From the NCBI GenBank assembly GCA_022925895.1, contig JAKSYS010000037.1, forward strand, positions 118,082 to 182,081: a stretch of 64,000 nucleotides of DNA, written 5' to 3'. Position 1 is the stretch's first letter. Each line of letters begins with the position of its first letter. A model generated the notes under the pieces. That model did not search any database and had not been told where the DNA came from. It was given only the letters and a program-made list of their open reading frames with translations. Positions 14,611 through 56,031 of the stretch are shown piece after piece. Source of the stretch: Fragilaria crotonensis (taxonomy: Eukaryota; Bacillariophyta; Fragilariophyceae; Fragilariales; Fragilariaceae). The position numbers were made by a program, and so were the translations under genes.

Positions 14611-16422
14611 CTACTGGTGGAGACGGCAATCCGAGCAGCAGGGGCAAACAATAAATGGATTTGGACCCAAACAATCGGAAATCAAGGAATCCAGAATTCC
14701 TCTGGTCACCAACTGGCATACAGAACTGGGAATGGTACCCGAAATGTCCGACCGATGAAGCGTAAACGTGCCCAAATCCGAATACGATCCGACCGCTTCT
14801 GGAATTGTTCCAGTAAATGCATTGCCATGCACTTGCATAAAGGCCATCTTGGGAAACACGCCAATGCCCTCAATGCTGCCAGTCAGTCGATTGTCATTGA
14901 TATCGAGCTGTTCCAAGAGCGTCAGAGCAAAGAGTTCCGAGGGGAGACTGCCAGTCAACTCGTTGAAATCCATGTCAATAAAGTACAGATTGGACAAACT
15001 GCCAAGGTGGGTTGGAATTGTCCCCCGCAATCCACCGCGCTCAAGACCCAAGAGCTCCAAATTCACCAACAAACCAAGCTCTGTGGGGATGGTTCCAACC
15101 AAATTGTTCGATTCTGAATTGTGCAAGATTGAAGAAAAACGTTAGTTTGCCATGAATTGCGTGCGTGAGGGTATCAACAGCAACAACAAAACCCACAACT
15201 CACCAAATTCCACTTGCGTCACGCAAAAGTCGCCATTGCACTTGATACCCGCCCAAAAGCATTCATTCGTCTTGGACAAGAACCGATCCTCTCCCTCAAA
15301 TGGATAGTCCAATCCACAATTATCCGTCGCACTCGGATTGTGACTGCATTCAAACCAGTCTTCACCTCCGGTGGAAAAATAAAATGTGGCCATGGTCCAT
15401 CGTTGCACTACTCCACATCCGGGGACATCTGGACAAATGACCATTTCATCCTCTTCAATCAGCCACTTGAGAGCCTTGGCTTGTGGCGACGTGATGTTGC
15501 GCAACAGTGCCAAATCCGAAACGGCTGCAATCTTGGCAACAATGGCCGCGGCACGTTCCTCCTTGGTCAAGGCGGCACAGGATATGGTGGGAGCCATGGT
15601 AGGTGTCGGTGCTTCCGTTGGAAGTGGTTCAATCGTTGGTGATCTCGTCGAAACGGGTTGAGCGGTGGTTGGTTCATCCGTGGGATTACGAGTGGGTGGG
15701 ACCGTCGCTGTGGGATTGCGAGTGGGTGGGACCGTCGCTGTGGGGCTTCGAGTGGGTGGGACCGTCGCTGTGGGGCTTCGAGTGGGAGGGACCGTCACCG
15801 TGGGATTGCGAGTGGGAGGTGCCGTCGCCGTGGGGTTGCGAGTGGGAGGAACCGTCACTGTGGGATTGCGAGTGGGAGGAACCGTCACCGTGGGATTACG
15901 AGTTGGAGGAACCGTCACGGTAGGGTTGCGAGTGGGAGGGCCTGTCGCTGTAGGACTCTTGGATGGAAGGGCACTTGGGTGTTCCGATTTCACCACTGAC
16001 GGAGACGTTGTTGGAATTCCAGCTGGCGCACTGGAGATGGATGGAATGGTTGTGGGTGCCTTGGACTGGGAAGACGGTGAGGAAGATGGTATGTTGGAGG
16101 GCATGCGCGTCTTGGTTGGAGTTGCGGATGGAGTCTGGCTTGGGAAGTCCATGCTCATGCCAAGGTCGGCTAGCACGTCATCCACAAACTTGTCGTCGCC
16201 TTGATCCGGAATGGGATCAACTGTCATGAACTGATCGTCATCGGTCGTCTCGAGCGAGTCCACGACATGGGCATCAATCTTGACGGAAACTGGATCGTTG
16301 GGTACTCCATCAAAGTCAAAGGTCCATCGAACGTCATTGCCAGTACGGAGACGTTGGAGGGGAAGATGGTACTCGGCTGTAGCCATGGTCGTTGCCAAGA
16401 ACAAGGGCAAGTAGAAACGCAT
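14611..16422 (-). CDS. Secreted LRR protein with Pro/Thr-rich stalk, two exons
   Basis: Predicted exons 16422-15204 and 15113-14611 with a 90-bp GT-AG intron; the junction keeps frame (phase 1), giving 573 residues. A signal peptide (MRFYLPLFLATTMATA) is followed by about 80 residues with acidic patches. Next comes a Ser/Thr/Pro-rich stalk containing about nine 10-residue repeats of the PPTRNPTVTV type. A Cys-containing LRR N-cap follows (YFSTGGEDWFECS, CFWAGIKCNGDFC). After the intron, about five plant-type LRRs appear (NLVGTIPTELG, GLRGTIPTHLG, ELTGSLPSELF, AFTGTIPEAVG), closing with CPCCSDC. There is no transmembrane helix or kinase, so the protein is probably secreted or wall-associated. 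The stalk may be O-glycosylated, by analogy with Pro/Thr-rich linkers. It differs in layout from the three membrane-anchored LRR paralogues further right. Confidence 0.9.
15665..15960 (-). repeat. 30-bp coding minisatellite (PPTRNPTVTV type)
   Basis: About nine tandem 30-bp units inside the LRR gene's stalk, with units differing mainly at Val/Ala and Asn/Ser codons. All six frames stay mostly open through it because the unit length is a multiple of three, which explains the long spurious plus-strand frames here. Confidence 0.9.
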
Positions 16423-17741: not shown

Positions 17742-18080
17742 TGGTACTCTATAGAATAATAATGGTAGTACATAAAATGTTAATGGTACTCTATAGAATA
17801 ATACATAAAATGAGGCCGTCAATAGGAACTAAAGTATTAGGATACTTAAGCAGGTCACGTGCATACACTTGATGAGACGACAAGAAATGCGCCAAGGTTG
17901 ACTATGCTTCGGGCAAAGCCTCCTCCGGCAGTCGTGGGCACTTGATGATTTAGGATGAGTCGGACTACAGTGGTTATACACGACGCTAAAAACTTGCCAA
18001 AAACTACCAATAGCATTATTGTCCGACATTCAAGGGCGATTCCGCATAGAATGCAGAGGGCTCGTATACTGCTAGTGCGA
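17742..18080. other. Intergenic, convergent 3' ends with short repeat
   Basis: Lies between the 3' ends of the SDHAF4 (+) and HMG-box (-) genes. A 22-bp AT-rich unit containing GGTACTCTATAGAATAAT occurs twice (about 17741 and 17782), directly after the SDHAF4 stop, and probably forms part of its 3' UTR. Nothing else seen. Confidence 0.45.
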
Positions 18081-19348
18081 TCAGGAATATCGATCCATAG
18101 TCGAGGGTTGGTGACTATTCTCGTCCGAGATGTGGGTGGAATCGTCAAACACGTCACGTCCGGCTAACGGGGGCGGTGGTATCGAGTCCACAAACGAGTC
18201 AAAGGATGCCGCTTTGTCACAAGAAAACATGTCAGGAAACAAGCAGGCGCGGGGCACAACGAAAGCGCGACCACATACCTTGACTGAAACTGTAGCCATA
18301 ATGAATGGGATACGGCTGGTGGGCCAAACTGGTTGCTTGACGATGGCGAGTATCATATTGGTAGGCATGGTTCGGAGCCTGTCGATAGATATCAGTGTTT
18401 TGATAGTATCCGCCATGATTCTGACGATAACCAACATCATGGTACGCGTTCGGAGCATCCATATACATGCCAGTCGCCAGTGACGACGAATTCTCCGCCG
18501 CAATCGCGGCATGCGGCGTGCGACTGGCTGCATCGACCCTTGCTTGCTGAGCCTTGAACGCGGCAGTTTCTTGCTTGTACGCGGCCCGTTCGCGTTCTTC
18601 CGTTTCCACGTACGGGCGCTTTTCCCGTTCGGGAGCCGAGCGCCACATTTCTCCCAGCAACCTTGATACATCTGTATTGCTCATGTCCGGATTTTGTTGT
18701 TTGACCAAGGACCGGCGAGTCTGACTGTACTTCAAAAAGGCGCTCATGGGGCGTTTGGGAGCCAATGGATGCTTCTTGGCACGACGCTTTGGAATGTTCC
18801 AAGGGCCAGTATAAGTACTCTTTTCCCGTCCATAGCTACGACAATCACACGATATGACAAGCCATGAGAATAAGAAAATCAAGCGTCAACAAGAAAGTGT
18901 TGCCGACCTACCGTAGCTTATCATCTCGAGCTATTTCGTCCCAATCAGCACGTTCACGATTCGACAGTGCTCTCCATTCCTCCGCAACTCGCTTGATAAT
19001 GTCCTTCTTACTAACATCCTGTACTCTCAATAGGAAGCAAATGGTGTTAGAAACATATCCTGCAACAGGCACGACCGCAGCATCGTCGACACCCTCTAGA
19101 ACAAACTCACGGATTTGGCCGAAATGTCTTTGGATTTGGCGTCCGAAAAGCACATGAACGCCGTCCGGGGAGGCTTGGGTGGTCCCTCCGGATCAACGTT
19201 GAGCTCTTGCACTTGAAGGATCTGACATGATTTTCCGAGATGGAGTTCAAACAAAAACTTGATAAGTTAGCATACATAGTTAATACGGTGAGAGTTGATC
19301 GTTGATGCATGTTAATGGGGTACTTACTTTGCGAGTTGATGAAGCCAT
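18081..19348 (-). CDS. Tandem HMG-box protein, five exons
   Basis: Predicted exons: 19348-19328, 19221-19111, 19018-18912, 18835-18279 and 18211-18081. All four introns are GT-AG and every junction preserves phase, giving 308 residues. HMG boxes bend DNA in chromatin proteins and some transcription factors. Box 1 (about residues 21-81) is split by an intron: PPKPPRTAFMCFSDAKSK, then KKDIIKRVAEEWRALSNRER. Box 2 (about 102-170) lies in exon 4: KRPMSAFLKYSQTRRSLV and LLGEMWRSAPEREKRPY, with the basic run PKRRAKK just before it. The C-terminal third is Tyr/His/Gln-rich and disordered, then acidic. The last intron's acceptor (ACAAAG) is weak; without it the protein would end about 15 codons into the intron. 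The first exon encodes only MASSTRK. Probably nuclear; DNA-sequence specificity cannot be told. Confidence 0.88.
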
Positions 19349-20287
19349 GATTGCGACTCGCGCGACGTGACTGTAGGAGTTGACTATTGATGGAGTATAC
19401 GAGTGGAGGCTGATATCGGAAGAAGCGTCTCCGAGACGACTGCCTTGCTCGATTGCGGAGTTGGTAGAGTCTCTCGCAAGAGTCTCAAGAGAGGAAAAGT
19501 TCAGCAATCTCACAAGTATGGGAGCATACATTGTGACAAACACTTGATCCAAGAAAACAGAGTCTTCCGCGACCCAAGCGTTTCGCCATTGTTGACCAAC
19601 AAGGTGCGTGGGATGCGGGACTTCTGCCACTCGAAACGAAAGCTCCGGGATTCAGAAATGAAACGTCATGGGATCTCACTATTCCTCGAACCTCTTCGGT
19701 GACTCAGCCATTGTTGGAACGAGAAGTACATTATCGTACTAGCACACTAGGTACTCAATTAACAATAAATGATGAGTTGAGAGTTGTCCTAAGGTCGTAT
19801 GCATATTGTTTGTGATCACCTCTTACTGTTCGTGGTTGTCGTCCTGTGTCTAATCAGCAAAGCACAACCCGAGAAAGTGGCTTCTCATAGAGGACTGACG
19901 ACCCACAAGCACTGGAGTTCCATCGGGTGGGGATCACTTCTATTGAGATTTTTTTGGTGTCAAGTGGCATGCCGGCATGCCTATTCATGATGGGCGACTC
20001 GCGACGCTTGGCTCAGCACCATATTCGCAATCGGACAGGCCTGCCCAGAGGTAGTAACCGTATGTGTAGGGTCGTTAACACGAGCGCAAATAGAGCAGCA
20101 TTATTCTTTTTAGAAGGAGAAGTGATCAGTTAGCAGCATTTGTCGACGTTCGGACCGAAGAACCGAAGTACATTGACCAAGGACTACGTAGCAGACCAGC
20201 CCCACCAGCCTAATTGTAGGACAGTTGGCATGAATACGACAGTACCTGGTACTTGTACACAGTTATCATATATGCATAGTCTCTTCC
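19349..20287. other. Intergenic before the retroelement
   Basis: Contains the HMG gene's upstream region. Open frames are short and overlap on both strands, and no domain is recognised. A 14-bp palindrome GCATGCCGGCATGC lies at about 19968. Confidence 0.35.
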
Positions 20288-20572
20288 GTCAGCGGCAGGG
20301 GAGGCGGACGAGCGGGCTACATCGTCGACGTCACGTCTCGTGCGTTGCCGACTCAGTACTAGTACCACGACGCACAAGGTACTAGTAGGAACAACAGAAT
20401 ACAGGCGCTTGAAAAGAAGCACACCTAGGCATACGCGCATATTGTTTATTACAACCAAGTTGCAACGGCAATTGGTCTCACACGATATTGCTGAGGAACC
20501 TGTCAAGACCGGTTGCCCACGGCGGTGTGAAGACGAAGAACGTTCGCCACACTAGTTACTTTAAACTTCGAC
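20288..20572 (+). repeat. Split direct repeat A1
   Basis: The 285-bp left terminal repeat runs from GTCAGCGGCAGG to AAACTTCGAC and is matched by A2 at 26259-26543 with two visible substitutions. It ends 34 bp before the gag-like ATG, so it probably holds the promoter and transcript start. Confidence 0.95.
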
Positions 20573-20606
20573 AGTCACTGTAAGGCACAGCGAGCGATTA
20601 CGCACC

Positions 20607-22787
20607 ATGGCCCTACAGTTTAATCAGCCAGTACCGGGCGCAGGCGGTGCTCCTCCGCTACCGGTAGATGTACCCTTTGAAGAGGAGCCCTGCACCTACC
20701 GAGAGCTCTATAGCAACGCTGCCAACAACCCCCCACCAGATCGCACGGCCGGCTACCTCTTTGGGTACCGCTTCACAGACCCGGCAGGAGGAGTCCCCAC
20801 ACCGGCGGCGTTGCGAGATCAGACAGTGGCGTTGAGTGATCGCCAGCCCATGGCTTTCCTCGCCTTGGTGACCGGACAGGTGGGCGGTTTTGAGGTTGTG
20901 ATACTCCATCGACTGCTACGATATATGGACGCGCCGGGAGACGACCCAACAGGCCTGCACGACCAAGTGCTGGGCCTCGCAGGAGATATCCTACCTCATC
21001 AGTACCCTACAGTGGGAGTCCCGAGTACTGCATTTCACTTGGTAGGAAATGCCGTAAGAGTCCCCACCATCGCAGCCATGACTGCGCTGCTCCCGACATG
21101 GGACGACGCCCAACCTGTGCTGGGCCCCTACAACGAACAGGACCCAGAGACCGAGGTGGTACGTCCCAGGCATATTCAGCTGGTGCCCGGGCGCTACGCA
21201 GCGCTTCTGGTGCACCGCCAACGAGTGCGCCCGAAGCAAGCATACCAGGAGGTTGTCGGGGCCATCCTCGCAAATAACGAACTGGAGGCCTGTCAAGATG
21301 TGGTGACGTGGCTTCGTGCAGCATGCACCGCCCGAGGGGGAGGTGGTGCGCAGACGGCGACGCCAAGTGTGCTACACGCGTTCACGCCCTTACACCTGCC
21401 CCCGGAGGCCTATCGCTACGTCACGGCCAAAGTACAAGCCGACCTACCAGCCCTTGCGAGAAGGGACCGAACGAGGGAGGGCGCACAGCAAGGCGATGCC
21501 GCAGCACTTCTACGGACCCTAGGTTTAACTCGTGCAGTCCTCGGGGAGGACGGAGCCGATGAAGAGCGCGCAGGAGGCAAGGCCCCGAAGACTATCGCCG
21601 AGGTGTACAAAGAGACGTACACCACCTTGTTGCGGTACTGCAACGTAGCAAACCCGGATCAGGTGGCACCAGTATGGGCGCGACTCGCGAATTGTCACAA
21701 AAGCGAGCAGCACACGGTGCTGACCCAAGAACTGCACAAGGTGTGTATGTCGCGGGGCCTTTCAGCCGAACTCTACGCCCCGGTCATCACTACGACTTTG
21801 AAACAGATGGTTGTCGGCTTTCAGTTCACCGGATATGGGGTGGACGACTTGACGTCGGGATGCCAGCCCTTTCTGGTATCCTACGCCGGCAGTGTTCATC
21901 ACTACCAAGCTGTGGCCGCCGCCAGTGTAGGAAACCAGCTCTCACAAGGCGAGCAGAACGCCAGTTTGGCCGACTACCGTACCATCAGGGAAAAAGAGAA
22001 GGTTAAATTCCCACGTGACATCTCCGAAGTGGGCATCACGCTAGCGAGGTATGCGGTGTTGTGTCAGTGCCTGTTCCAGGGCACCGCGGGAATGCCGCAC
22101 CCGTTTGTGGACACCATGTGGGGTCTGGTCGCCGGCATCCAGAACGAGGCCCCTTTTATCGCCGAACGCTTCCGTGCAGTGGCCCGAGGCCCCGGCTTCG
22201 CCTCCACTTATCATGCCCGGATCGTGCGTGCGGTGCAGGTGTGTGCCCACGAATACATGCAGGCAGTGGCGACCAATGTCGCTGACAGCGTCGTGGGCGT
22301 GACGCTCCCTGACTTTACCTCTCTTCTTCTGGAGCTGAAACGCGGAACATTTCAGAACTCCACCAACTGGATCGACCTGCCTGAGGCCTATCTTGAGCCC
22401 CCACCTCCCCGGGTGGGCACCTGGACGAGTAGTGAAGCTTCAACAGCAGCCACGACGCGCACCGGGGTTTCCACACTCACCGATGATTCGGCGGCACCGT
22501 CTCCCCGGACCTCTGTTACCAGGGTTGAGAATCCGGGCGGCGACGCCGAGTTTGCTGGGCTCACACTACGCCCAGGCGGCACACGGAACATCATGCGAGA
22601 ACATCGACCTCCGGCGAACGATGCAGGAAACGAATTCTGTGTGGCCTGGTGGACGAAAGGGGGGTGTTTCCCAAATTGTGGTCGCCGCTCTACGCATGTG
22701 CCGTTCGCCTCAGCCGGGGAACGCACTCGGCTTCTCACGTACGTACGCAACCACCTCGTGGCCCCCGCGGCGGGGGCCGCCACCTGA
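20607..22787 (+). CDS. Gag-like protein of the split-repeat retroelement
   Basis: A 726-residue frame starting at an ATG in good context (CACCATGG). The N-terminal part is Pro/Gly-rich, and the middle is helix-rich with no catalytic motif. The C-terminus carries a compact Cys/His cluster, C678-x8-C-x3-C-x5-H (CVAWWTKGGCFPNCGRRSTH), probably a zinc finger for RNA binding. Position first in the element, size and the C-terminal finger fit a structural Gag-like role. It ends in TGA, and the same reading frame continues open for another 1068 codons (next entry), so a read-through fusion is possible. I do not recognise any other domain. High GC relative to neighbouring host DNA is shared by the whole element. 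Confidence 0.85.
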   Translation: MALQFNQPVPGAGGAPPLPVDVPFEEEPCTYRELYSNAANNPPPDRTAGYLFGYRFTDPAGGVPTPAALRDQTVALSDRQPMAFLALVTGQVGGFEVVILHRLLRYMDAPGDDPTGLHDQVLGLAGDILPHQYPTVGVPSTAFHLVGNAVRVPTIAAMTALLPTWDDAQPVLGPYNEQDPETEVVRPRHIQLVPGRYAALLVHRQRVRPKQAYQEVVGAILANNELEACQDVVTWLRAACTARGGGGAQTATPSVLHAFTPLHLPPEAYRYVTAKVQADLPALARRDRTREGAQQGDAAALLRTLGLTRAVLGEDGADEERAGGKAPKTIAEVYKETYTTLLRYCNVANPDQVAPVWARLANCHKSEQHTVLTQELHKVCMSRGLSAELYAPVITTTLKQMVVGFQFTGYGVDDLTSGCQPFLVSYAGSVHHYQAVAAASVGNQLSQGEQNASLADYRTIREKEKVKFPRDISEVGITLARYAVLCQCLFQGTAGMPHPFVDTMWGLVAGIQNEAPFIAERFRAVARGPGFASTYHARIVRAVQVCAHEYMQAVATNVADSVVGVTLPDFTSLLLELKRGTFQNSTNWIDLPEAYLEPPPPRVGTWTSSEASTAATTRTGVSTLTDDSAAPSPRTSVTRVENPGGDAEFAGLTLRPGGTRNIMREHRPPANDAGNEFCVAWWTKGGCFPNCGRRSTHVPFASAGERTRLLTYVRNHLVAPAAGAAT

Positions 22788-25700
22788 CGAGACGGCCAGG
22801 GCGGCACTGCGCGTGCTCCCTGGCTGTTAAATGCTCCGCCTTGGGAGGAAGGTGTCGCGGGTAGGCCCGTCCAGCATCTGCCCGCAGGCACTAACGTTCC
22901 CAACGCGAGGAGTCGAAAGCGACCCGCGGAGACGCAAATCGGAGACGCAGAGTTAGCACTCGGTAAGTTAGCAACGGCGACAGGTGAAAAATTGGCTAAG
23001 TGCGGCTGGGCACAGGCAATCAACGAGGCGCGGAGAAATTCACACATCTCCGCCGCGGTCCGCCAGGTGCCCCACAAGGCGGCGCGCTTGCTGGAACACT
23101 TGCGTATCAGGGGCGCCGCGGTACCGGTGGCGACGCCCCCCTGGGAACTTCTCCAACGCGACGAAGCAGTCCAACGCGGAGCGCACAAATCATCCCACGG
23201 CGAGCGAGCTTTTGTGTACGAAGAGATGCTTGACTTTTGCCGGCAGGGCTACTGGATCGTCGTGCCCTACCGCGAAGTCCGACACCTCACCAACCTCCGG
23301 ATTGCGCCTCTTGGGGTCGTCCCGCAGCGAGACCGACGACCGCGGCTCATCGTGGATTACACGTTCTCAGGACTGAATGCAGAAACGGTGCCACTGGCAC
23401 CACGAGAGGCGATGCAATTTGGGCGGGCGCTACAGCGTGTCTGCAGCAATATTGTGCATGCAGACCCCCGGTACGGCCCCGTCATGATGGCGAAGATCGA
23501 CATCGCAGACGGCTTCTACCGAGTATGGATCCAGTCGGTAGACGTGCCTAAGTTAGGCGTTATATTACCACATACTCCGGGACTTGAGCCGTTAATAGCG
23601 TTCCCACTCGCCCTTCCGATGGGGTGGGTGGAATCGCCGCCGTATTTTACGGCGCTCACCGAAACCGCGTGCGACCTTGCCAACCAGATGTTGACCGCTT
23701 CACACGACACGCGACTGCGACAGCCGCACAGGTTGGAGGCAGTGGCTGCCACACCTCCCGCCGACATCGAGGCCCCCGCGGGTGTGGCCACGATCCGTGC
23801 TCCCACACGACGCACCGCGGGGGCGATACGGGTACGAGCGCCTGTTGCCACGGTCGACGTCTATGTGGACGACGTTTTGTTGCTGGCTCAAACCCAGCAT
23901 CAGCAGCAACGTGGCATGCGAGCAACTTTGCACTCCATTGATAGTGTTTTTCGGGCGCTTGAGCCATCGGACCGTCATGGAAAGGAGCCAGCTTCGGTGA
24001 AGAAAATGCTACGGGGCGAGGCATCTTGGTCCGCCCACAAACGTATGTTGGGGTGGGACCTCAATGCACAGGACATGACCCTGAACTTGCCATCGCACCG
24101 CGTGGATCGCCTTCGGGAGGTTCTGTCGTGGCTCCAACCCCCTAGGCGGCGCCTCGCCGTCGCCCGATGGCATCGGATCCTGGGAGAGCTCCGCTCCATG
24201 TCTCCCGCACTGCCGGGGACGCGGGGCCTGTTCTCGGTACTGCAAGAGGCACTCCGTCGAGGCGACCGCCGTCGGGTGCGCTTAACGCAACATGTCTACG
24301 ACACGGCTGCAGACTTTACCGCTCTGGTCGACTCCCTCGCCGACCGCCCCACACGGTTACAGGAGCTGGTGCCAACCGCGCCGTCACACGTTGGCGCCTG
24401 CGATGCCTGTCAGTCCGGCATGGGCGGCGTCTGGCTCTCCCACGATGCCGCCCCAATTGTTTGGCGCCAGCGCTTCGAGCCATGCGTGTCGAACGCCCTC
24501 CTCACTTCGGACAACCCACACGGTACTGTCACCATATCCGACCTGGAGCTCACGGGGATGATCGCCCACAAAGACGTCCTCGCGACCTCCCATGATCTAC
24601 GCGAGCGTACCGTGTGGATCGCGAGCGACAATAAGGCCGCCGTCTCGTGGTCGACCAAAGGGTCGTCCACATCCGTCGCAGCAAGGGCTTACCTCCTCCG
24701 CCTCAACGCGCTCCACCAACGCCATCACCGCTACGTTGCACGGCATCACTACATACCTGGACCTGTCAACGCCATGGCGGATGCCGCCAGCCGCCGCTGG
24801 GATTTATCTGACACTGACCTCCTCACCTATTTCACCACCACCTACCCACAGGAACACTCTTGGACACTGCGACACCTGCCCACCGTCACCAACTCTGCCT
24901 TGACTGGTGCGCTTTACAAAATGCGACCACACGACGGGTTTCACGTCAACGTAACGCCTCCTCCGACGCAAGCTGGCTCCTCTGGGAGGCCTTTTGCACC
25001 AGCTTGCAGTTGGATCCCCGGCACCTGGGCGCGCGCGACCCCATCCCCCTTCTCCAACTCTTTGCACAACGCTATCGAACCGGATCGATTGCGCCCGGCC
25101 GCCTCCCTGTACGAGCTCGGACAGTGGAGGATGCCGTACGAGCGGTGGGGCCAGGCGTACGCCCGGATGGGGGCCCCTGACCCTCGCCTAAACTCACACG
25201 GTCACCTGGACATTCGCCTCACTGCATTGTATCGCGCGTGGGCCCGCGACGATGCACCACCATCTCGCGTCAAACCCCTACCGGTCTCTGTGGTCGCCCA
25301 AGTCTGGGCGCTCGCGCAACAAGACGCCACCCCGACCGCTCGAGCGGCCGCGGAATGCTTAGTGCTCGCTTTCTACTTCTTGCTCCGGCCTGGTGAATAC
25401 CTGGGTACACCGTCCACCACTGGTACCTGCCCCCTCTTTCGCCTCCAAGACATCCAGCTATGGATAGGGGCGCGCGCGCTCGACACCTTCGCCTGTTCGG
25501 ATGCCGAACTCCGGGCAGCCACCTACGCCACCCTCACCTTCACCGCACAAAAAAACGGCGTCCGCAACGAAACTATCGGGCACGGTCGCTCCGGACACGC
25601 CTACCTCTGTCCTGTTCACTGCCTTGCCACTCGCGTCGCCACCCTGCGCACCTCGGGCGCCGCGCCCGCCACCCCGCTCAACGCAGTACGCCCGTCAGCC

Positions 25701-25994
25701 ACCGCCCCGTTCCGTTTCGTCCTCGCGTCTGATCTTACCACCCGCATCCGCGCTGCCATTCTCCTCCACCCTGACCCCGCCTATACCATCCGTGACGTCA
25801 CCGTCCGTTCTACCCGCGCAGGGGGCGCCATGGCCCTCCTTTGCGCGGGCGTTGACAGCGACCGGATCCGCTTGGTGGGGCGGTGGCGCTCCGACGAAAT
25901 GTATCGGTACTTGCACGTGCAAGCCCAACCGGTGATGAACGGCCTCGCCGCCGCTATGCTCCGCGGAGGCTCTTTCCGTCTCACCCCCTCTTGA
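22788..25994 (+). CDS. RT - RNase H - tyrosine recombinase polyprotein
   Basis: This frame begins directly after the gag-like TGA, in the same phase, and is open for 1068 codons; no in-frame ATG occurs before about 23226. The order is: a linker (KRPAETQIGDAELALGKL); reverse transcriptase with RLIVDYTF, motif A KIDIADGFYRVW and motif C YVDD (about 23862-23873); RNase H with acidic residues in GACDACQSGMGG, SDLELTG, ASDNKAAV and MADAASR. Last is a C-terminal tyrosine recombinase with Arg in FLLRPGEYLG, the box VRSTRAGGAMALL (about 25803), GRW and a terminal Tyr in EMYRYLH. The first His of the usual HxxR box is Arg here. Expression from the first frame by UGA read-through is the simplest route. 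A separate internal start would drop or truncate the linker. Confidence 0.9.
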   Translation, partial: RDGQGGTARAPWLLNAPPWEEGVAGRPVQHLPAGTNVPNARSRKRPAETQIGDAELALGKLATATGEKLAKCGWAQAINEARRNSHISAAVRQVPHKAARLLEHLRIRGAAVPVATPPWELLQRDEAVQRGAHKSSHGERAFVYEEMLDFCRQGYWIVVPYREVRHLTNLRIAPLGVVPQRDRRPRLIVDYTFSGLNAETVPLAPREAMQFGRALQRVCSNIVHADPRYGPVMMAKIDIADGFYRVWIQSVDVPKLGVILPHTPGLEPLIAFPLALPMGWVESPPYFTALTETACDLANQMLTASHDTRLRQPHRLEAVAATPPADIEAPAGVATIRAPTRRTAGAIRVRAPVATVDVYVDDVLLLAQTQHQQQRGMRATLHSIDSVFRALEPSDRHGKEPASVKKMLRGEASWSAHKRMLGWDLNAQDMTLNLPSHRVDRLREVLSWLQPPRRRLAVARWHRILGELRSMSPALPGTRGLFSVLQEALRRGDRRRVRLTQHVYDTAADFTALVDSLADRPTRLQELVPTAPSHVGACDACQSGMGGVWLSHDAAPIVWRQRFEPCVSNALLTSDNPHGTVTISDLELTGMIAHKDVLATSHDLRERTVWIASDNKAAVSWSTKGSSTSVAARAYLLRLNALHQRHHRYVARHHYIPGPVNAMADAASRRWDLSDTDLLTYFTTTYPQEHSWTLRHLPTVTNSALTGALYKMRPHDGFHVNVTPPPTQAGSSGRPFAPACSWIPGTWARATPSPFSNSLHNAIEPDRLRPAASLYELGQWRMPYERWGQAYARMGAPDPRLNSHGHLDIRLTALYRAWARDDAPPSRVKPLPVSVVAQVWALAQQDATPTARAAAECLVLAFYFLLRPGEYLGTPSTTGTCPLFRLQDIQLWIGARALDTFACSDAELRAATYATLTFTAQKNGVRNETIGHGRSGHAYLCPVHCLATRVATLRTSGAAPATPLNAVRPSATAPFRFVLASDLTTRIRAAILLHPDPAYTIRDVTVRSTRAGGAMALLCAGVDSDRIRLVGRWRSDEMYRYLHVQAQPVMNGLAAAMLRGGSFRLTPS

Positions 25995-26052
25995 CGACAT
26001 TTCCCCGCCCCGGCCTTTGGCCTCCCACCACTTTGGCCTCTGGCCCTCTGGG

Positions 26053-26258
26053 CCGGACCGGACGGTAGGCACCTCTCCGAGTGCTACCGTCGCACAGTTG
26101 GTTCGGGAAATGGTAACCTTACTAGTAAAGACGCCACCAACTCCAAAAACCAACTGGGCTTTCTAAGACCACTGTCCACTACATTCACTAGTAGGACCAC
26201 CGTGTCCCGCATAGTCCACCGACCAGCCGCTGAGGCGGGAAAGGCTACGCATCCCGCC
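26053..26258 (+). repeat. Split direct repeat B1
   Basis: A 206-bp repeat starting CCGGACCGGACGG and ending CATCCCGCC, directly abutting A2. It matches B2 except for a 3-bp ACT insertion near 26117-26125. Confidence 0.95.
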
Positions 26259-26543
26259 GTCAGCGGCAGGGGAGGCGGACGAGCGGGCTACATCGTTGAC
26301 GTCACGTCTCGTGCGTTGCCGACTCAGTACTAGTACCACGACGCACAAGGTACTAGTCGGAACAACAGAATACAGGCGCTTGAAAAGAAGCACACCTAGG
26401 CATACGCGCATATTGTTTATTACAACCAAGTTGCAACGGCAATTGGTCTCACACGATATTGCTGAGGAACCTGTCAAGACCGGTTGCCCACGGCGGTGTG
26501 AAGACGAAGAACGTTCGCCACACTAGTTACTTTAAACTTCGAC
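26259..26543 (+). repeat. Split direct repeat A2
   Basis: The 285-bp internal copy of A1. Visible differences from A1 are C to T in the ATCGTCGACGTC region and A to C in the CTAGTAGG region. Confidence 0.95.
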
Positions 26544-26556
26544 CCACCCGCCCACA

Positions 26557-26759
26557 CCGGACCGGACGGTAGGCACCTCTCCGAGTGCTACCGTCGCACA
26601 GTTGGTTCGGGAAATGGTAACCTTAGTAAAGACGCCACCAACTCCAAAAACCAACTGGGCTTTCTAAGACCACTGTCCACTACATTCACTAGTAGGACCA
26701 CCGTGTCCCGCATAGTCCACCGACCAGCCGCTGAGGCGGGAAAGGCTACGCATCCCGCC
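26557..26759 (+). repeat. Split direct repeat B2 (right end)
   Basis: The 203-bp right terminal copy of B1, ending at CATCCCGCC. A 13-bp linker separates it from A2. Confidence 0.95.
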
Positions 26760-28411
26760 ATTCTTGCGATGAGCGTATGCTACGAGTACCTGGTAGTCGT
26801 CTAGTCGTATGTCATATGAACCAGGTACCAGGTAGACTACTGGTACCAGGTACCAGTAGTACTTTCAATATTGGCAACGATTTTCTTGTTTGTGGCGGCA
26901 CCGATGACGGGAGGACGATTGTCGCGAGACATCGGAAATCAACATGTGCTCATCATTCGAAGGGTCCGATGTCCGATTAGGTTTCACCAATTTGACGTCA
27001 GCGCTCAGCGCCCACGTCACAGTACTGATGTCTTCACGTTCTACGTACTGACATACAGTACTACAGTAAGACAGTAACATACTGAGAGCATCCTGATTGG
27101 TACGCGCTGACGTCAAATTGGTGAAACCTGATCGGATCTCAGTAGACATTGGATACAGTACATGTTGTGACAAGTGACAAACATGACGAAGATCTACTTC
27201 ACACTCCGTTTTGTAGGTTATCTTGAACCTACTATTTGCTGGTACAAGTTTTACATACGGGCAAAATCGGCAGATGGGAACATCTCACCCTGGGAGGCTG
27301 ACTGCGAGTCAAAATATATGGATACACCGGCCAAGTATGGGATCCAGCTAGCATGAATATGCATACTGCATACTACAAAAAAAATATTGTAAATACGAAA
27401 TATTTGAGATAAAACAGTACTTGAAGTACTTGTAAAATGTACTCCAGTATTCCGAGGATAGGACATACTGGCGTGTTCAATATGGGCGGTACTACTAGCT
27501 ACTTGCCCTTACTGCTACATACGGCCTTACTGCGTTCCGTACCTGGCATCGATCCTGATTACTGGCGTACTGCAGTACACAGTATTAATGCTTGTGTACT
27601 GTGTACTAGTACTTTGCGACCATGTAGTAATCGATCCTTTTGCTTTATTGCAAGTAACTGCAATCTGCAATTCCATGACAACAGTACATGAGCTGTGGTG
27701 TAAGGTGAATTGGATTTGGAACCATCGCTCGGCAATCACTGATTGCTATTTTTGGTGCAGTATGTCGATTGCTACTGGAATACAAGGTACGGTAGATTTT
27801 GGTATGATAGAGGGCACTGGAGACTGGAGTACTCGAGTACTTGAATGTAGTACAGTATATAACTCCAGTTGACGACGCAGACAGAAAAATGTCACTCTGA
27901 TGTTACACTACGATAATATATAGAAAATTGGTCGTTGATTTTGTAGGTTAATGACACCTACAAAACCTTGTTCTTCCAGAGAAGAAGAAATTCTACATGC
28001 AGTCATAGTACGATTCTACTTGAATCGCGATTTGGGGGACGCATCCTCTCAGGTTTTGTAGGTTGATTTTAACCTACAATGACCGAAAAAGGCAGTGGTG
28101 ACGACCTACAAAACCAGTGGTTCTATATATTCGAAAAACGGAATCGGTTCGACGCTTGTGTATTGTAGTACTAGTACCAGGTACTACATGTATTAGGGTG
28201 TCAAAAGTCAAAACGCGTTGATTTGCAGTCGTGTGTTGTGTGTATGGAATGTATGTATAATGTAGTATGTAGTATGTTAGTATGTACACTCTTGAGACTC
28301 GGGAGAATTTCATGCAAACCGCGTACATGTACTGGTGGCGCCACTTGTCGACGACATCATAAAACAAAGATTTGTGTGAGTGTTCAATTCTTGATACGCA
28401 GATCGTTCCTC
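26760..28411. other. Intergenic between the retroelement and the first LRR paralogue
   Basis: No gene seen. The stretch holds GTAC-rich palindromes (26780-26860, 27410-27620), a 165-bp inverted-repeat element (separate entry), and several small hairpins built on TTTTGTAGGT and its complement (27209-28119). From about 28211 a block shared with the other two LRR paralogues begins (AAACGCGT...CAGTCGTGT). Confidence 0.5.
26972..27136. repeat. MITE-like element with 33-bp inverted arms
   Basis: Arms 26972-27004 and 27104-27136 are inverted complements over 33 bp with one mismatch and contain TTTGACGTCAGCGC. The inner about 90 bp (CACGTCACAGTACTG through CCTGATTGGTAC) recurs at about 47480-47568 upstream of the third LRR paralogue. 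That points to a dispersed family rather than chance. Confidence 0.7.
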
Positions 28412-30280
28412 ATGAAGCAAGGAAAACGACCCCCTTCATTCGACGCAAGTCCTGGAGCAGTTCCTATCGGCGGATCACGCGCATCGCACGGTTCGGACAC
28501 CCTCAGATCGCCCTATAAGGTGTCGCAAGAACTGTCTAGCCTTGATGAAGAGGAATGCAAAGAAGAAGTAGCGGCACGAAACGCAGCAACATCTGTCAAG
28601 ATTAAAGGTTTCAGCAATGCCGCTGCGGTGAATAACTCTGACGCCGCAGAGGAGATTAACGGTCTCAGCAATGTCGCTGCGCGGAATCGCTCTGACGCCG
28701 CGGAGGAGATTAACGGTGTCAGCAATGTCGCTGCGAGAAATCGCTCTGACGCCGCAGAAGATCGTGCGGTGCAGGGTCAGGAAAACCTTCCAGTTGGAGA
28801 ACCCATTTATGCGGAAGTCTACACGCCCTACTCCCCTGAACAAAAGAAGTGGCACGAACGGCCATTGTATCGAGCGGTTATGGTCGGGGGCTGCTTGTTG
28901 GCTACCCTTGTGGTCGTAGGGATTGTGTTGGCTGTGGTGTTCGTCACTCTGCCCCGACCTACAGGAGATACATCACCCCCAACACTGCTCCCCTCGACGA
29001 CGACGCCAACCTCTTCGCCGGTCACACCAAGCCCTACGGCTGTCCCAACCCCCTCGTTGACGCCAGAAGAGATCGCGTGCGAGTTTATCGGACATCCATC
29101 GTTGGCTGACTGTCGAACTACGTTTAGTTTCAACAGTTTGCAGGGCGACTCCGTAAATGGACCCACGACGATTCCGAGCGAGATTGGGCTGTTGACGCAG
29201 CTAACAACACTACTTTTTGACAACAGCCTTCTGACGGGAAGTATCCCATCATCAATTTCCGGGTTGACTAAGCTGCAGCTTTTGTCATTCTCCTACAACA
29301 ACTTAAAGGGAAGTATCCCTCCATCAATTTCTAGCCTGACAAACCTCGTCGGTTTGTGGCTCGACAATAATGCTCTCACATCGACAATCCCTTCCTCCAT
29401 TACAAACTTGGTAGAACTCAAGACCTTGGCATTCCTAAACAACGACCTGACGGGGGTCATTCCATTCTCATTTTCAAGATTGGCAGAATTGTCTGTTTTG
29501 TCCTTCGGTGGCAATGCCTTTGGGGGAAGTATCCCCGCTTCCTTGGGAAGCTTGACAAAGCTAACGTCGTTGGACTTTTCCGACAATGCCTTGACTGGAA
29601 GTATTCCAACTTCTTTGGGAAGCTTAAATCAGTTGACGGTGTTGAGATTTAATCAAAATGCGTTGACAGGGAGCATCCCGGCTTCGTTCGCAAGCTTGAC
29701 CAAATTGACCCAATTGTGGTTCCACACGAATTTAATCACAGGAACCATCCCGTATTTTATTTCAAAGATGACAGACCTTGTCTCTTTGTTATTCGCAGAG
29801 AACAGACTCGGAGGGGGTATCCCCTCTTCCATTGCAAGCTTGACCAAATTGACCACTTTGGGGTTGGACAAGAACACGCTTGTGGGAGGTATACCGTCCT
29901 CAATGTCAAATTTGACGAGCCTTGTCGTTTTAGATATGTCGCACAATCAACTGAATGGGACTATACCCGCATCGCTTTCAAGCTTGACAAGACTCACCGC
30001 TTTGGATTTCTTTCAAAATGAATTGACTGGCACCATCCCGTCGCTCATTTCGAAATTGACAAAACTACGAGCTTTGGAATTTCACGACAACAACTTGATC
30101 GGAGGTATCCCATCTTCCCTGTCAGCCTTGACACTTCTGACGTATTTGTCGTTGTCTGCCAATGAACTGACGGGGTCTATCCCGTCTTCGCTCTGCACGC
30201 AAGCCATAAGTCTATACATTGATTGCCGCGAAATTGAATGCACTTGCTGCATTGGTGTTTCTGGGGATTCTTGCACTTAG
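28412..30280 (+). CDS. LRR membrane protein, paralogue 1
   Basis: A 622-residue single-pass membrane protein. The ATG at 28412 begins MKQGKRPPSFDASPGAVPIG, the start conserved in the two paralogues; codons upstream are not conserved. A hydrophilic N-terminal region (about 1-150, presumably cytosolic) contains three 18-residue repeats. One transmembrane helix lies at about 153-178 (VMVGGCLLATLVVVGIVLAV). A Ser/Thr/Pro stalk and a Cys pair (EEIACEFIGHPSLADCR) follow, then about 14 plant-type LRRs with the x-L-x-G-x-I-P-x-S core, closing with a Cys-rich cap (SLCTQA, CREIECTCC). The topology puts the LRRs outside the cell. No kinase or other output domain is present, so any signalling must use partners or the N-terminal tail. 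Ligand unknown; roles in recognition or adhesion are inference. Confidence 0.9.
   Translation: MKQGKRPPSFDASPGAVPIGGSRASHGSDTLRSPYKVSQELSSLDEEECKEEVAARNAATSVKIKGFSNAAAVNNSDAAEEINGLSNVAARNRSDAAEEINGVSNVAARNRSDAAEDRAVQGQENLPVGEPIYAEVYTPYSPEQKKWHERPLYRAVMVGGCLLATLVVVGIVLAVVFVTLPRPTGDTSPPTLLPSTTTPTSSPVTPSPTAVPTPSLTPEEIACEFIGHPSLADCRTTFSFNSLQGDSVNGPTTIPSEIGLLTQLTTLLFDNSLLTGSIPSSISGLTKLQLLSFSYNNLKGSIPPSISSLTNLVGLWLDNNALTSTIPSSITNLVELKTLAFLNNDLTGVIPFSFSRLAELSVLSFGGNAFGGSIPASLGSLTKLTSLDFSDNALTGSIPTSLGSLNQLTVLRFNQNALTGSIPASFASLTKLTQLWFHTNLITGTIPYFISKMTDLVSLLFAENRLGGGIPSSIASLTKLTTLGLDKNTLVGGIPSSMSNLTSLVVLDMSHNQLNGTIPASLSSLTRLTALDFFQNELTGTIPSLISKLTKLRALEFHDNNLIGGIPSSLSALTLLTYLSLSANELTGSIPSSLCTQAISLYIDCREIECTCCIGVSGDSCT
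28601..28762 (+). repeat. Three tandem 54-bp coding repeats
   Basis: Units at 28601, 28655 and 28709 encode IKGFSNAAAVNNSDAAEE, INGLSNVAARNRSDAAEE and INGVSNVAARNRSDAAED. Paralogue 3 has one related copy (INGFSNLAVVNSSEA) and paralogue 2 only a remnant, so the repeat has expanded in this gene. Confidence 0.85.
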
Positions 30281-32820: not shown

Positions 32821-32860
32821 ATTAACAGATCTCGTCTTGCATCGTTACCTTCTTTTGACC

Positions 32861-34345
32861 ATGTCCATCCCTACAACAACTCCATCACCCATGCCCCAGC
32901 CTACCGAGCCGATGGTATTGGACGATTTGGCAAAAATCCCGGTTCGCTTGTTCCGTTTTGAGCCTGATACCCTCGATTTCGTCGTGGACGTTATTGCTTC
33001 TGGTTCGGAGAACCGCGCTACGCTTAGGCATGGGATTGATGCTCTCTTCTCCGACCATTGGCAGGTAACTGCTTGGTGTGACTTGAAGGTTTTCACGTCC
33101 TCGGACGTTACCGCGGCATTAGCTCCCGGTAGTGGAGTTCCTCCGGAGTTGTCTGCTACGGTCATCGTACGTAAGCTTGGGTATGTCGTCGACTTTGCCC
33201 AGTTTGGAACCTTGACCGCGTCTATGACGATGGATGACATCGTGTCGGCCGTTAAGAAGCGGTCGTCTTCCTCCGGTGGGTCTTCATCCCCTGCTCGTAA
33301 ATCTGTTCAGGTTTTCAACAAGAATGCTGTCCCTGCTTTGGACAAGTTCTCTGGACGGGATGAGGATTACTTTACGTGGAAGGAGTCTACGATTAATGTT
33401 CTTGGTGCCGCCGGCCTTGGACGTTTTCTTACGGATCCGCAGATGCTCTCTAAGCATACGTCCGTGGGGGAGAGCGTTTTTTATGCCCTTTGTGGCGATG
33501 TCCATGGTGGTCAGGCGCAATCTATCACCCAGGGTATGCTAGACGAGTCGCGTTTGGATTCCGTCGCATTGTGGTCCGGTCTTGAGTATTATTACGACAC
33601 GGCACTCAACCGCGCGAATGTCGTTTTGTTTGACATCCGGCGCTTGTTAAGCCTACGTCTTGACCCGGATACAACTGCGACAAAATTTATCTCGGATTTC
33701 CGAGACTGCCTCCAGCGGCTCCGCAAGAACAATGCCAGCAGGATCTCGGAAGACGTTGACACCCTTCGGGCTTTACTTTTGGTTGCGATTCAGGACGATG
33801 ACTTCGAAATGATACGTGACTCGATCGTTCACAAGCCAGGGATTGGTGTGGAGACAATTCTTACTGAGATCCGAGAGCGTGAGACCTCCGTGATGATGAA
33901 GGATCAGGCCGCTAAAGTAAGCGGTGATGGTGCGAACTCGGGAACTCGTTATTCCCGATGTGTCAATCAACAGTCATCGAGTGGTGCTCAAGTTCAGACC
34001 GGTGAGAGTAACAGTTCCAATTCGCAGAAGTGGAATATTCCAAAATACCCAGACTCGTGGAAGTCGGGATTTGGTCACTCGCTTTTTAAACTCAGGCTTG
34101 CGTGGCGTTCCGATGCCGGCAGGGGCAAAACGCAGTCGCAGCTCAACGCTGATTATGCAACGGTTGTCGAGCCGTTTGTTCCTGGTTCTGGTAAGTCGAA
34201 GAAAGGTGGTACGAAGAACAAATCTCAACCCTCCTCCAGTGATGACATGCAGATTGGAGATAGTGCCGATTCGCCGGCTGAGCCGAGCCGGAAACGTATC
34301 CGACTCCAGAAGAGCCGCCGCGTAGTTACGGAGCGGAGCGCTTGA
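32861..34345 (+). CDS. Copia element 1 Gag
   Basis: A 494-residue Gag-type protein beginning MSIPTTTPSPMPQPTEPMV, 40 bp after the 5' LTR. The central part (about residues 150-350) holds the copia-type capsid-like region: FSGRDEDYFTWKE, ALWSGLEYYYDTALNR, DFRDCLQRLRKNN and EILTEIRERET-like helices. The C-terminal part is basic (SRKRIRLQKSRRVV) and has no CCHC knuckle. The frame ends in TGA at 34343-34345, followed by CTA, and pol continues in the same phase. No internal stop occurs in Gag, unlike pol. Confidence 0.88.
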   Translation: MSIPTTTPSPMPQPTEPMVLDDLAKIPVRLFRFEPDTLDFVVDVIASGSENRATLRHGIDALFSDHWQVTAWCDLKVFTSSDVTAALAPGSGVPPELSATVIVRKLGYVVDFAQFGTLTASMTMDDIVSAVKKRSSSSGGSSSPARKSVQVFNKNAVPALDKFSGRDEDYFTWKESTINVLGAAGLGRFLTDPQMLSKHTSVGESVFYALCGDVHGGQAQSITQGMLDESRLDSVALWSGLEYYYDTALNRANVVLFDIRRLLSLRLDPDTTATKFISDFRDCLQRLRKNNASRISEDVDTLRALLLVAIQDDDFEMIRDSIVHKPGIGVETILTEIRERETSVMMKDQAAKVSGDGANSGTRYSRCVNQQSSSGAQVQTGESNSSNSQKWNIPKYPDSWKSGFGHSLFKLRLAWRSDAGRGKTQSQLNADYATVVEPFVPGSGKSKKGGTKNKSQPSSSDDMQIGDSADSPAEPSRKRIRLQKSRRVVTERSA

Positions 34346-37300: not shown

Positions 37301-38578
37301 ACTTGTACGCAGGTCCTGAGTTTGGCGAGCGAGAGGGATCAGTGCTCATCTTTAAGAAGGCCCTTTATGGCCTGCGATCTTCAAGCCGCGCTTTCCGTAC
37401 CCATTTCGCAGATTTTTTTTCGTTCACTTGGTTTTTCTGCTACTCGTTACGACCGTGATGTTTGGATGCGTAAACGAGAGTCGGAGGACGGCTACGATTG
37501 CATTTGTACGCACGTGGATGATTTTAAAATCATTGCGAGGGATCCGGAGCGTTGGAAGGCACATATCTCTGGCGCATTCTTCCTCAAATCTATAGGCCCT
37601 CCGGCCTATAATTTGGGTAATGATTATAACTTTTCCGATACAGAGGGTGCGTGGGTTATCAGTTGCGCTACATATTTGAAGGAATGTATTCGACGTATCG
37701 AGTCAGATCCTGATCTTAATGGTGACCTATGGACTCATCGTACCCCACTACCGGAGGGTTGCCACCCTGAGCTTGATGAGAGCACCTTGTTGTCAGACAT
37801 GGGGATACGTAAGTACCAAATGCTTATTGGCATGGCTCAGTGGGCGGTTACGATTGGACGTTTGGATATCACTTTTGCTGTCTCATCGCTCAGTCGATTT
37901 TCGGCGGCCCCTCGTGAACATCACTTGGAGCTGGCGTATTATCTTTTCGGTTACCTCAAGAAAAATCCAAATCGGTGTATTGTCGTGGACTCCAGACCCT
38001 TACTTGTGGACGACGAATTACGTTCGGCTTCATTTCACCCTGATTTTTTGGAGGACTATCCGGATGCACATGAGGACGTCTCTACTGATTTCCCGTTGAG
38101 TTATGGACGTGAGCTGGAGACTGCTGTGTTTTTCGACGTAGACCATGCTCACGATCATGTGACTCGCAGGTCCATAGGTCTTATTGTGTTCGTCGGCAGC
38201 ACCCCTGTCATATGGCAGAGTAAAAGCCAGGGTTCCATCGCGACCAGCACGTACTGTGCTGAGTTTATTTCAATGCGCTCTGCCTTGGAGGAGGCTATCT
38301 CGATCCGGTACATGCTCCGCTGTTTAGGAGTGCCGGTCACGCGTCCGACTGATCTCTACGGCGACAATTTTGGGGTTACTATACAAAGTGCGGAGGTTCC
38401 CGACGGGGAGTTAAAGAAGAAACACATCGCGATATCCTATCATTATGTTCGTGAGGCGATCGCGGCTAAAATTGTGGACGCGCACTGGTGTAAATCAGCC
38501 GAGAACTTCGCGGATATTTGTACCAAGGCGTTGGGTTCTAACGTATTCAACGACCTGGTTTCTGATTTGATGGCTTAA
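34346..38578 (+). pseudogene. Copia element 1 Pol, interrupted
   Basis: Pol follows Gag in phase after TGA and is broken further. Breaks are TAA at 35222-35224, a frameshift near 35716, TGA at 36445-36447, TAG near 36466 and 36681, and a frameshift in a run of eight T near 37411-37418. In order it keeps SDTGNDQTMV (protease-like, about 34445), integrase pieces (KSDNAPEFKGK, HHPNENIAERRGG, about 35300-35420), and reverse transcriptase with FKKALYGLRSSSRAF (about 37350) and HVDD at the catalytic site (about 37512). RNase H follows (FFDVDHAHDHVTRRS, STYCAEFISMRSALEEA) to a stop at 38576. The usual copia YVDD Tyr is His. Several of the stops could come from single transitions (CGA to TGA, TGG to TAG). 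Confidence 0.85.
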
Positions 38579-38766: not shown

Positions 38767-39035
38767 CATCTGTCAAAATGATATCTTTACGATCTTCTCT
38801 AGTAGTAGTAGCAGCAGTATGTCATCATATGATACGACAAGTACAATGTACATCATGCAGCATACTATATGCGTACAACATCAAACGCGTTAGTTTCCAG
38901 TCGTGTGTGTAGAATGAATACTAAGACGGTACCAGGTACGTCTAGAGTAGCAGCCATAGTAAGTAGAGCTCCAGAAGGCGATCTCACAAAAACCAGGAGT
39001 TGTGTGTTCAAATCTCAACACACAGATCGCTCCTC
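38767..39035. promoter_or_regulatory. Upstream block of LRR paralogue 2
   Basis: Contains a microsatellite-like AGTAGTAGTAGCAGCAGTA tract (about 38800) and, from 38884, the AAACGCGT...CAGTCGTGTG block shared with the other two LRR paralogues about 150-200 bp before their ATGs. Probable promoter or leader; the block could simply be duplicated sequence. Confidence 0.45.
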
Positions 39036-55833: not shown

Positions 55834-56031
55834 AAGACACTCATGACGTTCCTGTCGTATATCTTCGATGAGAGGTAACTTTACTGCTTGTGCCGCACAA
55901 ATATCATCAAATTCCAGGTACTCGTCTGACGGATGCGTTGCATGTACATGGAAAATGTTCCCATCGTATTCTGGCTCCTCTCTTGTATAACTGCATAGGA
56001 GTCTGTTAGATGCTCAATCAACCCATTAAGT

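What the first reader, a model, noticed from the sequence alone, without database searches (positions are those of the whole stretch)
20288..26759. Near-intact tyrosine-recombinase retrotransposon with split direct repeats
A1 and A2 (285 bp each, two visible differences) and B1 and B2 (206/203 bp) are arranged A1-ORFs-B1-A2-B2, and the coding frame encodes RT, RNase H and a tyrosine recombinase. Such elements are sparsely described from diatoms, and repeat identity suggests recent movement.
Basis: partly seen in the sequence, partly recalled or inferred. Interest (0 to 1): 0.75.

Follow-up and report, generated by a model that had tools for sequence, protein, structure and literature searches.

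The report
Diatom retrotransposon with readthrough and splicing
This diatom jumping gene appears to need ribosomes to read through a leaky stop signal to make its copying enzyme, and also RNA splicing to make its DNA-inserting enzyme; the signals for both are conserved in dozens of diverged copies, but no RNA or protein data were available to prove it.

Summary
The element is real: A1 20286-20572, B1 26053-26258, A2 26257-26543, B2 26557-26759 nest as described around Gag, RT/RNase H and a Cre-like tyrosine recombinase (YR). The single RT-RH-YR frame is an accident: 1 of 29 aligned copies, the window's, has an extra letter near 25.15 kb. In relatives YR has its own overlapping frame.

The main find is how the genes are joined. 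Gag and Pol share a frame split by one UGA. In 39 copies compared, the stop is UGA in 39, the next base C in 37 (CGG in 28), a covarying stem-loop starts 8 nt downstream in 38, and its loop is a multiple of 3 in 36. This matches the published type II readthrough signal. Further on lies a near-invariant 5' splice site (GTAAGT), and a CAG acceptor (35 of 35) lies at the start of YR. The predicted intron, 22963-24851, holds RT/RNase H; removing it joins the Gag-linker frame to YR.

Model: Gag by termination, Gag-RT-RH by readthrough, Gag-YR by readthrough of spliced RNA. Two sister-lineage elements (about 32% RT identity) share the in-frame UGA-C and candidate splice sites. The host matches Fragilaria crotonensis SAG 28.96.

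The parts
20286..20572 (+). Repeat A1 (left end of the element)
   Evidence: 99.3% identical to A2 over 287 nt
20607..22787 (+). ORF1, Gag-like, 726 aa; a Cys-His zinc-finger-like stretch at about 22638-22697 (motif recognised from memory)
   Evidence: open frame; no Pfam family at E up to 1; 64 matches to its C-terminal part in the genome
22785..22787 (+). UGA between Gag and Pol, which are in the same frame (context UGA CGA)
22795..22824 (+). Stem-loop starting 8 nt after the UGA (18-nt loop segment between CCAGG and CCTGG)
22788..24851 (+). Pol frame: linker, RT and RNase H; in this copy the frame runs on to 25994 only because of the one-letter length change
22963..22968 (+). Predicted 5' splice site GTAAGT (phase 1; exon 1 ends at 22962)
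22963..24851 (+). Predicted intron, 1889 nt (2 mod 3), holding RT and RNase H
24843..24851 (+). Predicted 3' splice site TACCCACAG (exon 2 begins at 24852)
24852..25994 (+). Tyrosine recombinase, split over two frames in this copy by a one-letter length change near 25.15 kb
   Evidence: fold of a relative's YR
26053..26258 (+). Repeat B1
   Evidence: 98.5% identical to B2
26257..26543 (+). Repeat A2
26557..26759 (+). Repeat B2 (right end of the element)

Best explanation
A diatom YR retrotransposon with split direct repeats (nearest Ngaro in anatomy) that makes three products from one transcript. (1) Most ribosomes stop at the UGA and make Gag. (2) On unspliced RNA a fraction read through the UGA, helped by the UGA-C context and the stem-loop 8 nt downstream, and make Gag-RT-RNase H. 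(3) On RNA from which the RT/RNase H intron (window 22963-24851) has been spliced out, the same readthrough continues into the other frame and makes Gag-linker-YR. Shown here: the signals, the constraint on them and the frame arithmetic. Inferred: that readthrough and splicing happen. Also inferred, from the known YR retrotransposons: a circular cDNA closed at a B-A junction and inserted by YR without target duplication.
For: Unselected: in the 30 loci, Gag and RT are in one frame in 25, and in all 25 the boundary is a single UGA followed by C. Selected set of 39 copies (36 if three indel twins are merged): UGA 39 of 39, +4 C 37, CGG 28; stem 8 nt downstream in 38; loop 15-42 nt, a multiple of 3 in 36; summed energy -878 against about -590 with 3' halves permuted, 0 of 300 as low. 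Covariation in two ungapped classes of 8 sequences exceeds 500 of 500 shuffles. 34 of 38 copies keep the linker open and in phase 1 from UGA to donor although its length varies from 136 to 226 nt; 23 of these 34 have no AUG there. GTAAGT at -29 or -32 from the RT anchor in 28 of 29 loci and present in 18 of 19 further pieces, while the amino acids encoded change. Acceptor glutamine CAG in 35 of 35 distinct copies against 51% in the RT frames. Predicted intron length 2 mod 3 in 13 of 13 copies with both frames intact. Codon-position variation switches from the RT frame to the YR frame beyond the acceptor (12 copies), and the RT-frame tail after the acceptor is predicted disordered. Type II definition: UGA, then CGG or CUA, extended stem-loop about 8 nt downstream (PMC3542737, passages).
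Against: No RNA, ribosome-profiling or protein data were available. No spliced retrocopy was found; the one close Gag-YR pair is an internal deletion. The outer five base pairs never vary and encode fixed residues, so they say nothing. The two sister elements lack the +8 stem and one of them has an AUG five codons after the stop. L026 has Gag and Pol in different frames, and L083 looks like a decayed relative of it. 11 of 34 linkers do contain an AUG. All copies come from one genome, so they are not phylogenetically independent.
Confidence: 0.78

Rival explanations
1. The UGA is an ordinary terminator and Pol is made by reinitiation, an internal promoter or internal ribosome entry; the stem-loop serves something else.
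For: In Tca2 of Candida albicans a gag-UGA-pol junction did not direct readthrough in a yeast reporter and contained a minor promoter (PMC2194720, abstract). 11 of 34 linkers hold an in-frame AUG; sister element L090 has one five codons after the stop.
Against: 23 of 34 linkers have no AUG. Loop lengths in threes and the open, in-phase linker imply that ribosomes cross from Gag into Pol in frame. Spacing and context match type II signals. [quoted passage not shown]
Confidence: 0.12
2. The readthrough is real but GTAAGT and CAG are not splice sites; YR is made by a -1 frameshift from RT/RH or by its own initiation.
For: The YR frame is -1 to RT/RH, as in many frameshift pairs; 6 of 13 intact copies have some YR-frame AUG up to 200 nt after the acceptor.
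Against: 12 of 13 intact copies have no -1 slippery heptamer where YR could be entered, and the 13th has them only more than 400 nt upstream. AUGs are not at a shared place, and 7 of 13 copies have none. The donor and acceptor letters are kept where codon use would let them drift, and their phases match.
Confidence: 0.1
3. The UGA is read as selenocysteine.
For: UGA is used in all 39 copies compared, and a stem-loop follows it closely.
Against: No SECIS family in the window element in Rfam at E up to 5 (window copy only). The next codon and the stem fit a leaky stop, and a retroelement needs Gag in excess (general knowledge).
Confidence: 0.02
4. The fused 1000-aa RT-RH-YR frame of the window is the natural gene product.
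For: The frame is open over 1068 codons.
Against: It lacks the first part of YR, which lies in the other frame, and 28 of 29 aligned copies do not have the extra letter that creates it. The assembly is Nanopore-based.
Confidence: 0.03

Closest known systems
Ngaro retrotransposons (DIRS order)
   Same: RT, RNase H and YR; [quoted passage not shown] no methyltransferase detected (definitions from PMC4157794 section 7; Pfam).
   Different: Ngaro and Viper do not usually have overlapping frames (PMC3266345, passage); here YR overlaps RT/RH and is reached by a predicted intron, and Gag-Pol by a UGA signal. No tree with reference Ngaro sequences could be made.
PAT elements of the DIRS group (Pat1, Toc, Kangaroo)
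   Same: Split direct repeats A1-B1-A2-B2.
   Different: PAT elements encode a methyltransferase domain; none was detected here.
DIRS1-like retrotransposons
   Same: Overlap of the pol and YR frames, reported in half of 28 annotated elements (PMC3266345, passages).
   Different: DIRS1-like elements have inverted terminal repeats and internal complementary regions; here the repeats are direct.
Type II stop-codon readthrough of alphaviruses, tobraviruses, furoviruses and coltiviruses
   Same: UGA followed by CGG or CUA, extended stem-loop about 8 nt downstream (PMC3542737, PMC11166343, passages).
   Different: Those are RNA viruses; here the signal separates Gag and Pol of a YR retrotransposon in a diatom, and CUA is rare (1 of 39).
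Gag-stop-Pol of murine leukaemia virus and of Candida retrotransposon Tca2
   Same: gag and pol in one frame separated by one stop codon, with a 3' RNA structure (listing and abstract).
   Different: MLV uses UAG with a pseudoknot and Tca2 a UGA with a potential pseudoknot that did not suffice in yeast; neither encodes a tyrosine recombinase.

Membership tests
YR (DIRS-order) retrotransposon | Reverse transcriptase | tested here: met
   RVT_1 in 14 of 14 copies, weak (best E 2.4e-6); fold nearest foamy virus, CaMV and HIV RT (E 7.4e-7 best, but TM at most 0.25; model pLDDT 60)
YR (DIRS-order) retrotransposon | RNase H | tested here: inconclusive
   no Pfam RNase H match; residues about 525-710 are modelled at high confidence and fall within RT-RH matches; catalytic motif recognised from memory; the domain was not searched alone
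YR (DIRS-order) retrotransposon | Tyrosine recombinase instead of a DDE integrase | tested here: met
YR (DIRS-order) retrotransposon | No target-site duplication | tested here: inconclusive
   none seen by eye in 3 of 3 elements whose ends were read; no empty site available
Ngaro | Split direct repeats with internal repeats downstream of YR | tested here: met
   window and C226 fully, C418 with a short B pair
Ngaro | No methyltransferase domain | tested here: inconclusive
   none found by Pfam in RT/RH frames (E up to 0.1) or YR frames; profiles miss even YR here
Ngaro | RT and YR group with Ngaro in a tree | not testable with these tools
   no reference YR retrotransposon sequences in the collections; no relatives found
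Ngaro | Usually no overlap of pol and YR frames | tested here: not met
   YR overlaps the RT/RH frame in the relatives; the source says 'do not usually', so this is not strictly defining
DIRS1-like | Inverted terminal repeats | tested here: not met
   no inverted repeat of 40 nt or more in window 18000-29000
Type II readthrough signal | UGA followed by CGG or CUA | tested here: met
   UGA 39 of 39; CGG 28, CUA 1, other UGA-C 8, UGA-U 2
Type II readthrough signal | Extended stem-loop about 8 nt downstream | tested here: met
   8 nt in 38 of 39; permutation and covariation tests
Type II readthrough signal | Measured readthrough | not testable with these tools
   needs a reporter assay or peptides
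Spliceosomal intron | Conserved donor and acceptor in matching phase | tested here: met
Spliceosomal intron | Spliced RNA or spliced retrocopies | tested here: inconclusive
   no retrocopy found; no RNA data held

The most novel reading that the evidence does not exclude
YR retrotransposons of diatoms use two switches, programmed UGA readthrough and alternative splicing of a large RT/RNase H intron, to deliver polymerase and recombinase separately as Gag fusions. The in-frame UGA-C and the intron predate the split of lineages only about 32% identical in RT, and splicing of this kind may explain the pol/YR frame overlaps of DIRS-like elements more widely.
Probability: 0.6. Interest if true: 0.85.

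Novelty: new variant of a known kind. Interest (0 to 1): 0.74.

Why it matters
The open papers I saw list overlapping pol and YR frames of DIRS-like elements without saying how YR is expressed (passages). Here dozens of diverged copies in one genome carry a readthrough signal and splice signals with internal controls (loop lengths in threes, covariation, codon choice at the splice sites), so the model can be tested directly with existing RNA-seq. It would extend a readthrough signal known from RNA viruses to a retrotransposon in a diatom, and it offers a natural panel of about 36-39 stem-loops for studying readthrough.

Tried and rejected
A spliced retrocopy was sought by comparing the listed Gag-end and YR-start places by eye (both lists are lower bounds); the one clearly close pair (C37, 373 nt) is an internal deletion that keeps part of RNase H. 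An empty site was sought with the left flank: one hit, the window itself; the right flank was not searched. Relatives elsewhere: none in IMG/VR, GTDB genomes or phages; metagenome contigs were not scanned. PDB sequence searches were empty for the window ORF2 and for the YR and RT profiles. Rfam gave three hits below threshold and none relevant. A -1 frameshift into YR was not supported (one search stopped with a script error after 9 of 13 copies and was rerun). The Gag fold was not predicted.

Limits of the counts. The copies were picked from fetched loci by: any stop, 6-10 nt, CCAGG, a CCTGG downstream within 90 nt, and GTAAGT at 90-330 nt (L082, without donor, admitted by hand). Arms and donor are therefore not independent results of that call; stop type, +4 base, exact spacing, loop length and phase are. 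47 places became 39 by dropping rows over 90% identical without gaps. Three pairs that differ by an indel (L010/L028, L013/L031, L032/L084) escaped this; merging them leaves 36 copies: UGA 36, +4 C 34, spacing of 8 in 36, loop a multiple of 3 in 35. L026 and L083 fail the pattern and are not among the 39. In one search, rows from L068-L087 were picked by GTAAGT, L030 was misanchored and L075 was represented by a second GTAAGT, so the independent donor evidence is. My notes say 30 rows for (it has 29) and 'about 26 of 30' for the shared Gag-Pol frame (recount: 25 of 30).

Papers. PMC9476933: part 1 of 2 of the whole text. PMC4157794: section 7 and passages. Passages only: PMC3266345, PMC3542737, PMC11166343, PMC5890265, PMC2806351, PMC8613185, PMC3212892, PMC12159174, PMC5009743, PMC3145265. 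Abstract and outline: PMC2194720. I found no paper on readthrough or splicing in YR retrotransposons in searches, of which I saw the listings; subscription papers are mostly not held, and the review by Poulter and Butler was not. Introns in some DIRS-order elements may be reported there.

Full report
OBSERVATION. The repeats are real. A1 20286-20572 and A2 26257-26543 are 99.3% identical, B1 26053-26258 and B2 26557-26759 98.5%, in the order A1-ORFs-B1-A2-B2. Of two other elements compared, C226 nests identically and C418 has the A pair with a 38-nt B pair. The ends are alike in the three (CC|GTCAGCGG at the left, GCATCCCGC at the right), with no target duplication seen by eye.

HOST. The genome has 62.1 Mb in 881 contigs. 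Fragilaria crotonensis SAG 28.96 is reported as 61.85 Mb nuclear, 879 contigs, GC 47.4%, N50 89,148; contig C123 here is 89,148 long. A RuBisCO large-subunit gene lies on C881. The identification rests on these figures; I made no sequence comparison with a named diatom (one search failed and was not repeated).

CORRECTION. The single RT-RH-YR frame is not natural. In relatives YR lies in the -1 frame relative to RT/RH and overlaps its end. The window copy alone, 1 of 29 aligned, has one extra letter near 25.15 kb, which splits YR over two frames. The assembly is Nanopore R9.4.1 polished with Illumina, so this may be an error. Of the 30 loci fetched, 13 have both an RT/RH frame of 789-825 aa and a YR frame of 374-405 aa, so the two-frame arrangement is the one kept.

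THE UGA. Gag (20607-22787) and Pol share a frame, separated by one UGA at 22785-22787. Without any selection, 25 of the 30 loci keep Gag and RT in one frame and all 25 have UGA-C at the boundary. In the selected set of 39 copies (36 if three indel twins are merged) the stop is UGA in 39, the next base C in 37 and the next codon CGG in 28. A stem (CCAGG...CCTGG with a variable inner helix) begins 8 nt after the stop in 38. The loop is 15-42 nt long and a multiple of 3 in 36; the three exceptions (L013, L028, L037) are also out of phase at the donor. Summed folding energy is -878 kcal/mol; with 3' halves permuted among copies it is about -590 (five printed totals), and 0 of 300 permutations are as low. 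In two ungapped length classes of 8 sequences the covariation scores are 0.393 against 0.189 and 0.248 against 0.109, with 0 of 500 shuffles as high. The outer five pairs never vary and are uninformative. The published type II readthrough motif is a UGA followed by CGG or CUA, often with an extended stem-loop about 8 nt downstream (PMC3542737, passages).

THE INTRON. Between the UGA and RT, GTAAGT stands 29 (or 32) nt before the RT anchor in 28 of 29 loci; in the 29th (L030) it is elsewhere because of an insertion, and L028, skipped by that script, has it too. It is also in 18 of 19 further fetched pieces (missing in L082). The encoded residues change (Gly, Arg or Cys; Lys; then Leu, Trp, Tyr, Phe or Cys) while the six letters do not; GGT is 18% of glycine codons in the RT frames. 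The UGA-donor distance varies from 136 to 226 nt, and 34 of 38 copies keep phase 1 and an open frame; 23 of the 34 have no AUG in it. At the YR start the glutamine of the RT frame is CAG in 35 of 35 distinct copies (51% elsewhere), after a free third position, and is followed by G in 30. The predicted intron is 2 mod 3 long in 13 of 13 copies with both frames intact and in 22 of 29 overall, which joins the Gag-linker frame to YR. In 12 copies codon-position variation follows the RT frame to about the acceptor and the YR frame well beyond it, and the RT-frame tail after the acceptor has pLDDT near 30. Of 13 intact copies, 12 have no -1 slippery heptamer where YR could be entered and 7 have no YR-frame AUG up to 200 nt after the acceptor.

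DEPTH. Two elements of a sister lineage (RT 32.5% and 31.8% identical to the window) also have Gag and Pol in one frame split by UGA-C (UGA CGA, UGA CAG), YR in the -1 frame, and phase-1 candidate sites: GTGAGC donors, TTACAG and CCAAG acceptors, and introns of 2177 and 1898 nt, both 2 mod 3 (the second length from the coordinates). These sites were picked from a few candidates. Both lack a stem near the UGA, and one has an AUG five codons after the stop.

MECHANISM. One transcript, two switches. Termination gives Gag; readthrough of unspliced RNA gives Gag-RT-RH; readthrough of spliced RNA gives Gag-YR. Shown: signals, constraint, frame arithmetic. Inferred: that both events occur, and the replication cycle, which rests on the known YR retrotransposons. 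Splicing that removes RT/RH would also keep polymerase and recombinase off the same polypeptide.

EXCEPTIONS. L026 keeps the donor but has Gag and Pol in different frames around AAUGACAUGAGG with a hairpin; L083 looks like a decayed relative. How L026 makes Pol is unexplained. No spliced retrocopy and no empty site were found.

PLACE AMONG KNOWN KINDS. By anatomy it is nearest Ngaro (split direct repeats downstream of YR, no methyltransferase detected; definitions from PMC4157794 section 7), but Ngaro elements usually lack frame overlap (PMC3266345, passage), and no tree could be built. DIRS/Ngaro-like elements are mentioned in a review of marine stramenopiles (PMC3145265, passage), and 'Gypsy/DIRS1' in a diatom repeat tally (PMC8613185, passage). 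I file it as a new variant of YR retrotransposon; the expression scheme is the novel part, on the searches listed under Tried and rejected.

Noticed in passing
L026 (C196:36687-41918) and L083 (C499:3490-3990): Relatives in which the Gag stop is followed 5 nt later by a second UGA in another frame (AAUGACAUGAGG) and a hairpin, with the GTAAGT donor kept. L026 has intact RT and YR frames, so it may have switched from readthrough to another way of making Pol.
   Followed up: partly
L090 (C186:11800-15300) and L091 (C9:86800-90300): A second, distant lineage of YR retrotransposons (RT about 32% identical) in the same genome, with the same Gag-UGA-Pol and -1 YR layout but without the +8 stem-loop.
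   Followed up: partly
window 28223-30280, 39000-40754, 47648-49519 (+): Three related open frames with a predicted-looking membrane segment and leucine-rich repeats; the first also holds three 54-nt tandem repeats (28599-28761).
   Followed up: no
window 32837-38578 (+) and 51525-57342 (-): Open frames that read like Ty1/copia retrotransposon gag and pol pieces (by eye, no profile search).
   Followed up: no
window 18232-18882 (-): An open frame with an HMG-box-like stretch just left of the element (by eye).
   Followed up: no
window 15142-16422 (-): An open frame with many PPTRNPTxTV-type repeats (by eye).
   Followed up: no
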